A program made the translations under genes and the position numbers. From a virus, in the IMG/VR virus record IMGVR_UViG_3300012985_000006, positions 78,490-142,489 of that record: a stretch of 64,000 nucleotides of DNA; one strand, given 5' to 3'. The notes under the pieces are model-generated. The model saw only the letters and a list, made by a program, of their open reading frames with translations. It was not told where the DNA came from and did not search any database. Shown one piece after another: positions 42,093-62,382 of this stretch (positions within the stretch are counted from its first letter, which is position 1; each line of letters begins with the position of its first letter).

Positions 42093-43505
42093 TTAGTCGA
42101 CGCCTTTCAAGTTACACACAGGGTACAGCCGTTTGTGAACGGTAGCTATGTCTGCCTGCTCTAAGACAGCCACAACCTCGTCCAAATCTTTGTAAACCTC
42201 GCCGCACTCATCCAAAGGTGTGTGCTTGTGATTGCCGACGATTCCTTCGATCGTTACACCGTTGAAGGTTCGCTTCACCGTCTTCATCTCATGATCGATG
42301 CGCTCTTGCTTGTGCTCAAGCTTTCGCTTCGCCTCTCCTCGGGCCATCTTCCGGCCAGAGCCGTGGTTGACCGAACAAGCGGACTTGTGAGCGCCAGCAT
42401 TTGGAAAAAGGATAACCGCCCCAGTCATCATGCTGCCAGGAATCAGACAAGGGTGTCCAGTCGTTTCCCAAGACGTTCCAACCAGGTCGGGATGGCCTGC
42501 TGGAAAAGCACGGGTCGCCCCTTTGCGATGGACGTAACCTCGCTTGGTCGTACCGTCCGGCAAGACCAAGGTTTCCTCTTGAACGAGGTTGTGACTGATC
42601 TCGTAGTAGACCTCCGAGTCGGCCGCGAAAACCTCTTGCAGAGCCTCCTGGACGCCCTGAACAATCAAGTGTCGATTGGCGATAGCGTAGTTGGCCGCAG
42701 AGTTGTGGTACGCCCAATACTCCTTGCCTAGAGGCTCATCGAGTCGAAGCCAGGAGTCTTCACGACGGTTGGACGGAAGTCCTCGGACCTTCGCCCCCTC
42801 GTAGAAGAAATGGTTGGCAGTCTGCCACCCGTACCCACGGGAGCCACAGTGAATCATCACGTAGACTTCCCCAGAATCCCGATCAACCTGGACCTCAATG
42901 AAGTGGTTGCCCCCTCCAACACTACCCAGCTGGGGAGATGCTTTCTCGTAGGCCCTCTCGATCTTGTTCAGATCGATGTCCTCTGGAATCTCGATGTACT
43001 GACGTTCGCAAAGATCCGACCGGATCCCCAGCGCCTTGGCACCGTAACGAAGGATCTCTTCAGTCTTCTTGGCCCCAAACTTGGTCGAAGCGCCCTGACC
43101 CTTGCCCATGGCGACCCGCTTCTCAATCTCACGAATCAACCGTTCTCGCTGATACCAGCTCTTCAGGGAACTGGCCTGCAGGTCGACCTTCATGTAGACC
43201 ACCCCACACGAAATGTCGTACCCAGAACCAGCCTGGATGATTGTGTTGTCGGTCACCACCGCGCAACCGACGGGGATTCCGTAACCGAAATGACAGTCTG
43301 GGAGGGCATACACACCCGTCACACCCTCATAGGACGCTGCCACTCGAAGCTGATCCCACAAGCCTTCCTCAGAGTCCTGGTAGAGGCTCTCAGACAAGAA
43401 GGCGTTGGCTTCCACCAACATACCAGAAACCTTTGGTAGAACGTATTGACCTTCAGCGACCTTGATAGCGGCGTACTTGAGAGACATGAGTGCCTTTACG
43501 GCCAT
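42093..43505 (-). CDS. rtcB: RtcB RNA ligase
   Basis: A 470-residue RtcB, which joins 2',3'-cyclic phosphate RNA ends to 5'-OH ends using GTP and Mn2+. Metal and GMP-binding residues are in place: PDCHFGYGIPVG (His72 region), GSGYDISCGV (Cys100), GGGNHFIEVQ, MIHCGSRGYG and SVNHGSGRKMARGE (the guanylylated His). It has no Archease or RtcA neighbour. In bacteria RtcB is often encoded with the Ro protein Rsr and Y RNAs; both are present in this window. Likely job: repairing tRNA or other RNA cut by host nucleases, or maturing broken transcripts. Confidence 0.95.
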   Translation of the reverse strand: MAVKALMSLKYAAIKVAEGQYVLPKVSGMLVEANAFLSESLYQDSEEGLWDQLRVAASYEGVTGVYALPDCHFGYGIPVGCAVVTDNTIIQAGSGYDISCGVVYMKVDLQASSLKSWYQRERLIREIEKRVAMGKGQGASTKFGAKKTEEILRYGAKALGIRSDLCERQYIEIPEDIDLNKIERAYEKASPQLGSVGGGNHFIEVQVDRDSGEVYVMIHCGSRGYGWQTANHFFYEGAKVRGLPSNRREDSWLRLDEPLGKEYWAYHNSAANYAIANRHLIVQGVQEALQEVFAADSEVYYEISHNLVQEETLVLPDGTTKRGYVHRKGATRAFPAGHPDLVGTSWETTGHPCLIPGSMMTGAVILFPNAGAHKSACSVNHGSGRKMARGEAKRKLEHKQERIDHEMKTVKRTFNGVTIEGIVGNHKHTPLDECGEVYKDLDEVVAVLEQADIATVHKRLYPVCNLKGVD

Positions 43506-43544
43506 CGAGGATAGCTCAATAAGGGTCTCTTGTCACCTACACCC

Positions 43545-43979
43545 TCAAGTCAGCAGGCGTATGTAAAAAGTCAGAGCCGCCCCTGAGACATTCGTAATGG
43601 AGGTCTGGGTGAAAGTCTCATTGTGGACGATATCCACCGTTCCCGTAGCATCCACCCAGTTGGAACTCACTTTTTTCAACACATACACTGAAGGCGGAAA
43701 TCCGAATCCGTGATTCAAGACGACCGACGCCCCGTTGTTGATCAGTTGGGAGTCTTCAAGCTTCAGCTTACCTGCTGCCAAGAAGGCCTTGATGTCTCCC
43801 GACAGGACGCTTCGCAACACTTCTGAGGTGTTGGGCAAGTACACGCTGTGTCCTGCCCCAAGATAGCGTTCTTCTCCCCTCCGGCCCTCAGTTTGAGAGG
43901 CGGGGGTAAACTTCAGATCTCGTAAGTGGAGCGTGCCCTGAGAGATGTTGGTGACCTTCACATCAGGGCACGGCCACAA
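43545..43979 (-). CDS. Hypothetical beta-rich protein
   Basis: A 144-residue protein with a beta-sandwich pattern (KVTNISQGTLHLRDLKF, AGHSVYLPNTSEVLRSVL, NHGFGFPPSVYVLKKVSSN) and no cysteine pairs or catalytic motif. It follows the VWA gene by 9 nt and precedes rtcB by 39 nt. Resembles small tail or decoration proteins in composition only. Not recognised. Confidence 0.65.
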   Translation of the reverse strand: MWPCPDVKVTNISQGTLHLRDLKFTPASQTEGRRGEERYLGAGHSVYLPNTSEVLRSVLSGDIKAFLAAGKLKLEDSQLINNGASVVLNHGFGFPPSVYVLKKVSSNWVDATGTVDIVHNETFTQTSITNVSGAALTFYIRLLT

Positions 43980-60472: not shown

Positions 60473-60525
60473 GATACTATCTAACGGTCACCTGGAGGAG
60501 AGGTTTAGTCTCCTCCAGGCTCTTT

Positions 60526-62382
60526 TCAGGCTGCCCAAGCAGGCTTCTGTAGCAGGTCGGTCGCCAAGATGGTGTCCACAAGGGACAGACGAGGCTTGAC
60601 CTGCGCCCTGGTTGCTGCGGCCGTTACCGGCGTAGCAGCGATCAGGTTACGAAGCACGCGAGGCACAGCGTACGGGTCGGTGAACGTCTTCTCATCGATC
60701 TCGAAGCACGGGATATTCAAACGAACAGCCGTTTCCTTGACCGCAGTACCTTGACCGTATTGACGGGAAGGAGTGGGGATGAGACCGAATGCGACCGGAT
60801 TGAGGTCAGATTCCTGAACAGCTCGGCTGAATTGGGGGGCACCCTCATCACCAACGAAGATGAATAGGACATCCCTACCTGCAACAGGCCTGTACTTCTT
60901 GAGAGCAAGTACACCAGCACCGTAATCCGTACCACCACCTGCCTTGATACCTGAGAAGGCGTTGGTGACACCTGCTGCTGAAGCGTGAGGGATTCTTACT
61001 TCACGTCCCGCTGTGTTGAACACCGAAACGTGAAGATTATCCAGCGGGAAAGCTGGAACCATCTGAGAGATATATCGCTTAGCCTTCTCGATCGCCTCAT
61101 CCATCGAACCAGAGATGTCGACAATGACGTAGACTTCCAGGTCCTTGGCCACTTCCTCGACAGCCTTTTGGACTGCCGTATCCGCCGCCTCCTGCAAGGC
61201 TTCCTTGACTTCCTTGGACTTGACCCGCAAAGCGACGTTAGCCGCCCGCTGGTCTTCCGCCTTCCTGAGGGCCGCCTGCCAACGCCCCTGAATGTCAGGA
61301 ACCTTGAGCAAACCGTGCGATTCAAGGGTCTCGCTGTAGATGATTAGGTCCTTGTCGGAAAGGGATCCCGATTCGATCGAGGCCGCCAATACAGCTCGGG
61401 TGAGACCAATCTGATCTGGCAACATACCGACGATTCGCTTGAAATCGGGCTTTTGGGCCACGATCCGTTCGCAAATCTGTTCCTCAGTGAGACCTGCCCA
61501 CGACTCAGCTGCCTTGACGGCCTTACCGATGGCGATCGTACGGTGACCGTCCTTCGCCTGGTCCTGCTTCCAACGAAGCAATTGGAAGAACTTCTCCGTT
61601 GTCGGCTTGTACCCGATCGCTCGTGCCAAACGAATGAGCGAGGTCCGGAAACCCTTCTTGATCAGACCCTTGAGCAGTTGCTGGTTGACCTCACGGTAAC
61701 GCAACCACTTCTCGATCACTCGGGGGAGACGACCCAAGAAGGCGTTGCGCTGGCTCTGGCCGAAACCCAACTCACGGTTGACGGCCGCGACCTCGTCCAA
61801 CTCCAAGAAATCCAGAAGGCGCAAGATCATCTTGACGTCCAGGAACTTCTTCCCGTCGCAAAGTACCATCGCCTCACCGATGTCTCGGAAGTCCTCATCG
61901 TAGAACGCCACCTTACCAGCATCCAAGACCGGATCGCCCTTACGGGTCTGAACCAACATGAATGCCGCCAAAGCTACCTTCAAGTCACGGTGATCTTCAC
62001 CGTAGGCGTAGCTAGCCCAACGAGCTGCAAACTCGTTGTCGAGCCGCCATACTTCGGCGATCTGGCGGTACATCCACTCAGCCACCTCAGGGAATAGGCC
62101 TGGCTTCATGTAGCGACCGACAATCGTACGACCGTCCAACACCTTACCGTCGGCACTCAAGGTGCCAAGACGAATCAGGTTCGTCTTCTTGCCCGCCTTT
62201 TCCTTGCGGTAGACGACCTTCTGGCCGGCCTCTTCCTTGTAGGTAACTGGAGACCACTTCACCTTGGTGACGGAAGTAGGGTCCGGCTGGACGATTCCTG
62301 GCCTATTGTGTACAGCATGATCGGAATAGGCCAAAAGCGTGTTGATGATGCGCTCTGCAGGGCCCAGGTTTTCATTTGCCAT
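60526..62382 (-). CDS. rsr: Ro60/TROVE protein with VWA domain (Rsr)
   Basis: A 618-residue Ro 60 kDa-like protein. The TROVE ring of helical repeats (about 20-370) includes VWRLDNEFAARWASYA, KVALAAFMLVQTRKGDP, RLPRVIEKWLRYREVNQQ and LIRLARAIGYKPTTEKFFQLLRW. The C-terminal VWA domain (about 405-570) has the MIDAS motif DISGSMDEA with TD and DEG sites. Ro proteins bind Y RNAs and single-stranded ends of misfolded RNA; bacterial Rsr works with Y RNA and nucleases such as PNPase. A Y RNA and RtcB are in the same window. Normal length and intact. Confidence 0.92.
   Translation of the reverse strand: MANENLGPAERIINTLLAYSDHAVHNRPGIVQPDPTSVTKVKWSPVTYKEEAGQKVVYRKEKAGKKTNLIRLGTLSADGKVLDGRTIVGRYMKPGLFPEVAEWMYRQIAEVWRLDNEFAARWASYAYGEDHRDLKVALAAFMLVQTRKGDPVLDAGKVAFYDEDFRDIGEAMVLCDGKKFLDVKMILRLLDFLELDEVAAVNRELGFGQSQRNAFLGRLPRVIEKWLRYREVNQQLLKGLIKKGFRTSLIRLARAIGYKPTTEKFFQLLRWKQDQAKDGHRTIAIGKAVKAAESWAGLTEEQICERIVAQKPDFKRIVGMLPDQIGLTRAVLAASIESGSLSDKDLIIYSETLESHGLLKVPDIQGRWQAALRKAEDQRAANVALRVKSKEVKEALQEAADTAVQKAVEEVAKDLEVYVIVDISGSMDEAIEKAKRYISQMVPAFPLDNLHVSVFNTAGREVRIPHASAAGVTNAFSGIKAGGGTDYGAGVLALKKYRPVAGRDVLFIFVGDEGAPQFSRAVQESDLNPVAFGLIPTPSRQYGQGTAVKETAVRLNIPCFEIDEKTFTDPYAVPRVLRNLIAATPVTAAATRAQVKPRLSLVDTILATDLLQKPAWAA

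What the first reader, a model, noticed from the sequence alone, without database searches (positions are those of the whole stretch)
42093..62382. Ro60 (Rsr), Y RNA and RtcB form one phage RNA-repair system
Rsr (60526-62382), RtcB (42093-43505) and the Y RNA are encoded together with a dense tRNA set. In several bacteria rsr, Y RNA and rtcB genes are linked in an RNA-repair operon. Here the genes are 17 kb apart but on the same strand. A module that repairs or sorts tRNAs cut by host anticodon nucleases would help a phage that carries many tRNAs.
Basis: partly seen in the sequence, partly recalled or inferred. Interest (0 to 1): 0.92.

Follow-up and report, generated by a model that had tools for sequence, protein, structure and literature searches.

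The report
Ro60-like protein with tRNA-shaped RNA partners
A large phage, its relatives and some Myxococcota carry a gene set that pairs a distant relative of the human Ro60 RNA-binding protein with a row of tRNA-shaped noncoding RNAs and ubiquitin-like tagging enzymes; the tRNA-repair ligase RtcB is only an optional neighbour.

Summary
Rsr and RtcB are real ORFs at the stated coordinates, but the proposed trio is only partly right. The 618-aa "Rsr" does not match Pfam TROVE. By predicted fold it is a divergent Ro60-like protein (best PDB hits TROVE/Ro60). Its constant partners were missed: in nearly all relatives it starts a same-strand block Rsr–319-aa protein–JAB peptidase–85-aa ubiquitin-like candidate–E1/ThiF. 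RNA partners exist: just downstream of E1 the window holds four tandem elements (57426–57963, minus), tRNA-like RNAs carrying one extra arm in three topologies, one matching the YrlA Y RNA layout. A covariance model of the arm shows strong covariation and hits 37/37 viral records tested; 113/114 elements lie on the Rsr strand and 107 within 20 kb (24.5 expected). Among 377 Myxococcota-phylum genomes, 8 of 10 with the Rsr family carry it versus 2 weak hits in 367 others. RtcB occurs in only 16/48 viral records, though one subfamily lies within 18 kb on the same strand in 8 of 9. Best reading: a Ro60-like/tRNA-mimic RNP wired to ubiquitin-like tagging, probably handling or sensing tRNA damage; RtcB is accessory.

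The parts
60526..62382 (-). Rsr-like (Ro60-like) protein, 618 aa: helical N-terminal part plus C-terminal VWA with complete MIDAS (D422, S424, S426, T485, D512 invariant in 61 relatives)
59513..60472 (-). 319-aa partner protein (B319): beta-rich N-terminal domain, long helix, C-terminal alpha/beta domain with invariant Gly-x-Cys-Leu (C274); no known family; possibly E2-like
59095..59550 (-). JAB/JAMM metallopeptidase, 151 aa; E, HxHP, S, D motif invariant
58825..59082 (-). small ubiquitin-like candidate, 85 aa, invariant C-terminal Gly (RPKxPFG + short tail)
58021..58647 (-). E1/ThiF adenylyltransferase, 208 aa (PF00899; GxGxxG and invariant Cys in TCEDG)
57836..57963 (-). RNA element 1: cloverleaf tRNA-like RNA with the extra arm between anticodon arm and T arm (acceptor GGGGGAT/ATCCCCC)
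   Evidence: 67.1 bits
57693..57831 (-). RNA element 2: circularly permuted form, T arm then TTCG-capped acceptor hairpin, D arm, anticodon arm, all inside the long stem (YrlA-like layout)
   Evidence: 26.7 bits
57562..57685 (-). RNA element 3: same form as element 1 (acceptor GCCGCTT/AAGCGGC, anticodon GTT)
   Evidence: 65.5 bits
57426..57558 (-). RNA element 4: tRNA-like body (ARAGORN tRNA-Leu(taa) 57458-57530) enclosed in the long stem
42093..43505 (-). RtcB RNA ligase, 470 aa; accessory, not a constant partner

Best explanation
The locus encodes an RNP system. A divergent Ro60-like protein (helical ring plus VWA) binds the recurrent extra stem of several tRNA-shaped noncoding RNAs encoded beside it (Y-RNA-like tRNA mimics). 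The same operon supplies ubiquitin-like tagging parts (E1, JAB peptidase, a small Ubl candidate and a possible E2-like partner). Most likely the RNP displays tRNA-like heads with varied anticodon loops as bait or guides for tRNA damage, or steers damaged tRNAs to repair or decay, and the Ubl enzymes modify the RNP or a client protein. RtcB, where present, would rejoin cleaved tRNAs. Shown: gene order, conservation, RNA secondary structure with covariation, co-occurrence. Inferred: RNA binding by the Ro60-like protein, Ubl conjugation, and the role in tRNA damage.
For: Best PDB fold hits of the Rsr-like model (pLDDT 87) are TROVE/Ro60, aligned over about 550 columns: 9kop E 2.8e-8, phage phiLo Ro60 9l5y, Xenopus Ro 1yvp. 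Profile comparison with Myxococcota TROVE proteins gives E 9e-8 to 2.5e-8 over about 350 columns. The five-gene block is conserved (61, 54, 59 and 55 of 64 loci hold B319, JAB, Ubl, ThiF; several of the rest are contig ends) and recurs with a diverged sister gene in other genomes of the phylum. E1 and JAB catalytic motifs are intact. RNA arm: 89% of cells paired versus 61% in shuffles, 16 of 17 pairs with double changes; model hits in 37/37 viral records, 113/114 same strand, 107 within 20 kb; 8/10 versus 2/367 genomes. Canonical Myxococcota TROVE genes also sit beside roughly 125-nt tRNA-like RNAs with an inserted arm.
Against: The N-terminal half alone does not match TROVE by profile (no better than controls), so TROVE homology leans on the VWA part and on fold search with low TM-scores. 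The Ubl fold is untested and an E2 role is inconclusive. No RNA-binding or expression data. Many elements keep 7-nt anticodon loops and could be translated tRNAs.
Confidence: 0.5

Rival explanations
1. Intron-containing and circularly permuted tRNA genes: the extra stem is a splicing structure, cut by an unknown endonuclease and joined by RtcB, yielding working tRNAs; the Ro60-like protein is a processing chaperone.
For: Types 1-3 are circular permutations of one design; acceptor, anticodon (for example GTT, TTG, ACG) and T arms look tRNA-like; RtcB is near in some phages; permuted tRNA genes with such flanking stems exist in algae and archaea (own knowledge).
Against: Elements occur in all 37 viral records tested, most without RtcB. 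Many have a 5-bp D stem with a short CGGU loop, some an extra GNRA hairpin, one permuted element lacks an anticodon arm. In canonical TROVE loci the inserted arm sits at another position.
Confidence: 0.2
2. One reading: Rsr, Y RNA and RtcB form one phage RNA-repair system protecting phage tRNAs.
For: All three present in the window; the window-type RtcB lies within 18 kb on the same strand in 8 of 9 records; the published Salmonella operon joins rsr, Y RNAs and rtcBA (PMC7790460).
Against: RtcB missing from 32 of 48 viral records and from the flanks of the genome-collection copies; the gene set with constant linkage is the Ubl operon; nearby RtcB could reflect shared descent.
Confidence: 0.15
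3. Anti-phage defence or inter-phage exclusion system: bait tRNAs sense anticodon-nuclease activity and trigger Ubl tagging that halts the cell or superinfecting phages; phages captured it from Myxococcota.
For: E1/JAB/Ubl sets occur in known bacterial defence systems (PADLOC E1-E2 models match ThiF); the set is carried by both phages and Myxococcota genomes; anticodon loops vary.
Against: No toxin or effector gene is constant in the block; PADLOC has no model for the other members.
Confidence: 0.2

Closest known systems
Bacterial Ro60/Rsr with YrlA Y RNA (Deinococcus, Salmonella; RYPER)
   Same: Ro60-like protein with C-terminal VWA; neighbouring RNA that joins a long terminal stem to a tRNA-like module with D, T and acceptor arms (PMC8394870); elements 2 and 4 share that layout
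   Different: Pfam TROVE and Rfam do not detect it; several RNAs in tandem, most as full cloverleafs with an anticodon arm and the stem inserted as an extra arm; Ubl enzymes are the fixed partners
RNA-repair operon rsr-yrlBA-rtcBA (Salmonella, PMC7790460)
   Same: Ro60-like protein, Y-like RNA and RtcB present in one genome
   Different: RtcB 17 kb away and optional; Ubl operon instead
Jumbo-phage ROT/TROVE proteins and RtcB (Iyer et al. 2021, PMC7824862)
   Same: Phage TROVE-like protein plus tRNAs and sometimes RtcB already noted
   Different: The passages found there mention neither the Ubl operon nor the tRNA-shaped RNA arrays, nor this family
PRTRC and other bacterial Ubl systems
   Same: E1/ThiF clearly related to PRTRC_ThiF (probability 98); JAB plus small Ubl-sized protein in one operon
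   Different: No ParB, E or F genes in the block; Ubl, JAB and B319 not alignable to PRTRC C, A and B; Ro60-like protein added

Membership tests
TROVE/Ro60 (PF05731) | match to the TROVE domain model | tested here: not met
   not among the families matched by 61 relatives at E<=1 that were listed and none in own record at E<=10
TROVE/Ro60 (PF05731) | Ro60 fold: helical repeat ring plus C-terminal VWA with MIDAS | tested here: inconclusive
   TROVE/Ro60 are the top full-length Foldseek hits, MIDAS intact, but N-terminal half alone is not significant by profile
TROVE/Ro60 (PF05731) | binds Y RNA or misfolded RNA | not testable with these tools
   needs pulldown
YrlA/Y RNA | match to a Y RNA family in Rfam | tested here: not met
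   searches list only tRNA and tmRNA as credible matches
YrlA/Y RNA | long stem from 5' and 3' ends plus tRNA-like module | tested here: met
   elements 2 and 4 in the window; also L002, L004, L065, L066
YrlA/Y RNA | encoded next to the Ro60 homologue | tested here: met
rsr-yrlBA-rtcBA RNA-repair operon | rtcB adjacent to rsr | tested here: not met
rsr-yrlBA-rtcBA RNA-repair operon | rtcA and rtcR present | not tested
   not searched in whole records
RtcB ligase | PF01139 and catalytic motifs | tested here: met
Ubl conjugation system | E1 with nucleotide motif and catalytic Cys | tested here: met
   G8, G10, G13, D31, R34, K54, D94, C149 invariant in 20 sequences; that C149 is the catalytic Cys is inferred
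Ubl conjugation system | JAMM peptidase with E, HxHP, S, D | tested here: met
Ubl conjugation system | beta-grasp Ubl with C-terminal Gly | tested here: inconclusive
   Gly invariant and at or near the end in most; fold not predicted; no sequence hit
Ubl conjugation system | E2 with UBC fold | tested here: inconclusive
   GxCL motif after a four-strand meander; no E2 match among sequence or fold hits
PRTRC system | full PRTRC gene set (ParB, E, C, F, B, A, ThiF) | tested here: not met
   only ThiF aligns; gene sets compared

The most novel reading that the evidence does not exclude
A ubiquitin-like tagging system guided or triggered by RNA: tRNA-shaped bait RNAs held by a Ro60-like ring sense cleavage of their anticodon loops and switch conjugation of a small Ubl, linking tRNA damage to protein tagging in Myxococcota and their phages.
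Probability: 0.25. Interest if true: 0.97.

Novelty: new variant of a known kind. Interest (0 to 1): 0.88.

Why it matters
The role of bacterial Ro60 and Y RNAs is still largely open. This family ties a Ro60-like protein to a defined set of tRNA-shaped RNAs and to ubiquitin-like enzymes in one compact operon, in phages and in Myxococcota genomes, including a named strain. That makes two questions testable: what the tRNA mimicry is for, and whether Ro RNPs are regulated by ubiquitin-like tagging. It also shows that tRNA-gene callers mistake such RNAs for tRNAs.

Tried and rejected
Rfam searches for Y RNA in the window and relatives: no credible match beyond tRNA and tmRNA. N-terminal-only profile comparison with TROVE: not significant, so the TROVE claim was softened. 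PRTRC membership: only ThiF aligns. E2 by sequence (Pfam, PDB profiles) and by fold search: nothing convincing. VIA-align listed only VWA domains for Rsr, as expected when one domain fills the list. Clusters 7 and 8 of the neighbourhood table were antisense frames of ThiF and Rsr in GC-rich loci and were dropped. Window 63235-63490 was considered as the Y RNA: acceptor helix and T arm with a long insert, but it lacks the CUC/UUACAAGC arm. Paper searches for a Ro60/TROVE plus ubiquitin-like operon found nothing in the held library.
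Full report
Observation. Both ORFs exist at the stated coordinates on the minus strand. RtcB is certain (PF01139, E 1e-91) with its catalytic motifs. The 618-aa 'Rsr' has no TROVE match in Pfam, only a VWA domain. The window is the last 64 kb of a 142,489-base IMG/VR virus record. It also holds a tmRNA and about ten tRNA calls.

What the protein is. A profile scan of IMG/VR returned 50 loci with relatives; further relatives lie in phage record Rctr197k and in 13 contigs of the genome collection, whose record titles name mainly Myxococcota and Deltaproteobacteria. An AlphaFold2 model from 61 sequences has mean pLDDT 87. Its best PDB matches are a TROVE domain (9kop, E 2.8e-8), the Ro60 of Thermus phage phiLo (9l5y) and Xenopus Ro (1yvp), aligned over some 550 columns; TM-scores are low, perhaps because the relative placement of domains differs or is uncertain. 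Profile-profile comparison with Myxococcota TROVE proteins gives E 9e-8 over 362 columns, or 2.5e-8 with sister sequences added. The VWA part alone gives 3e-6 to 5e-7 and the N-terminal part alone is not better than controls. I therefore call it Ro60-like, not a proven TROVE member. The VWA metal site (D422, S424, S426, T485, D512) is invariant.

Its constant partners. All-against-all comparison of neighbouring ORFs and HMM searches show a same-strand block Rsr, B319, JAB, Ubl candidate, ThiF in that order. Of 64 loci, 61, 54, 59 and 55 hold B319, JAB, Ubl candidate and ThiF; several of the remaining loci end at a contig end. A diverged sister Rsr (seven genomes of the same phylum sample, E about 1e-160) heads the same block, for example in contigs of 3.2 and 1.2 Mb, so the block is not only viral. 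JAB keeps E, HxHP, S, D. ThiF keeps its nucleotide motif and an invariant Cys in TCEDG and aligns to PRTRC ThiF with probability 98. The 85-aa protein ends in an invariant Gly followed by none or a few residues in most members, as expected of a Ubl trimmed by a JAB enzyme; its fold was not predicted. B319 ends in an alpha/beta domain with invariant Gly-x-Cys-Leu after a four-strand meander, which recalls an E2 active site, but no fold or sequence search supports this.

The RNA partners. Directly downstream of ThiF the window carries four tandem elements of 124-139 nt, a few bases apart, at 57836-57963, 57693-57831, 57562-57685 and 57426-57558. Each joins a tRNA-like body to one recurring arm: inner helix, CUC internal loop, outer helix, then U/A-UACA-A/C-GC. 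In elements 1 and 3 the arm lies between anticodon arm and T arm of a full cloverleaf with a 7-bp acceptor. Element 2 is a circular permutation with a TTCG-capped acceptor. Element 4 encloses the tRNA-like body in the stem. Elements 2 and 4 have the layout published for YrlA: a large stem of the 5' and 3' ends plus a tRNA-like domain (PMC8394870). The arm plus T arm were aligned from 23 copies: 89.3% of cells pair against 61.2% in shuffles and at most 51% in slid controls, and 16 of 17 pairs show changes on both sides. A covariance model hits 37 of 37 viral records tested; some of these records supplied its training copies. Of the 114 hits of about 30 bits or more, 113 lie on the Rsr strand and 107 within 20 kb, where 24.5 are expected. 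In 377 genomes of the Myxococcota phylum, 10 hold the Rsr family proper, 10 hold RNA hits and 8 hold both; the two RNA-only genomes have marginal scores (28.6 and 28.7 bits); Fisher p 2e-13. One Rsr genome missed by the model, Paraliomyxa, has an enclosed-type element straight after ThiF. In genome-collection copies the elements often lie just upstream of Rsr. Canonical TROVE genes of the same phylum also neighbour roughly 125-nt tRNA-like RNAs with an inserted arm, at another position.

RtcB. It is found in 16 of 48 viral records, not in Rctr197k, and not in the flanks of genome-collection copies. The window's 470-490-aa subfamily lies within 18 kb on the same strand in 8 of 9 records. Shared descent may explain part of this. 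So RtcB is an accessory, not a core part.

How it may work. Shown: gene order, intact enzyme motifs, RNA structure with covariation, co-occurrence. Inferred: the Ro60-like protein binds the shared arm; the tRNA-like heads act as bait, competitors or guides in tRNA damage; the E1, Ubl candidate and JAB tag or untag the RNP or a client; RtcB rejoins cleaved tRNAs where present. The main rival is that the elements are intron-bearing or permuted tRNA genes. The nonstandard D arms, the anticodon-less permuted copy in L004, the extra hairpins in some copies and the frequent absence of RtcB speak against it but do not exclude it.

Known or new. Phage TROVE proteins with RtcB were noted in jumbo phages (PMC7824862), and rsr-Y RNA-rtcBA operons in bacteria (PMC7790460). 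I found no report of a Ro60-like protein in a Ubl operon with tandem tRNA-shaped RNAs in the papers searched; most subscription papers were not searchable.

Noticed in passing
window 47980-48444 (-): Phage-encoded tmRNA (RF00023, 72.8 bits).
   Followed up: no
window 63235-63490 (-): tRNA-like acceptor helix (GACCCTG/CAGGGTC) and T arm separated by a long structured insert; not found by ARAGORN; may be an intron-bearing tRNA or another tRNA-like RNA.
   Followed up: partly
window 43989-45659 (-): Second VWA protein (556 aa) beside RtcB; homologues near Rsr in about ten loci.
   Followed up: partly
window 46379-47741 (-): Two HNH endonuclease-like genes; HNH families recur around Rsr in many relatives.
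   Followed up: no
L002 15335-15392 (+): Mini tRNA-like element with acceptor, D and T arms but no anticodon arm.
   Followed up: no
L088 3263-3906 (-), L087 392-525 (-): Near canonical Myxococcota TROVE genes: about 125-nt tRNA-like RNAs, three copies in L088, each with an inserted arm; possibly undescribed Y RNAs.
   Followed up: partly
window 50386-52767 (+): Response-regulator and histidine-kinase-like ORFs on the opposite strand inside the tRNA region; relatives near Rsr in a few loci.
   Followed up: no
L001 (Virus Rctr197k): About 40 tRNA genes flank the Rsr-like gene, which is annotated only as a misc_feature; ThiF-like gene nearby.
   Followed up: partly
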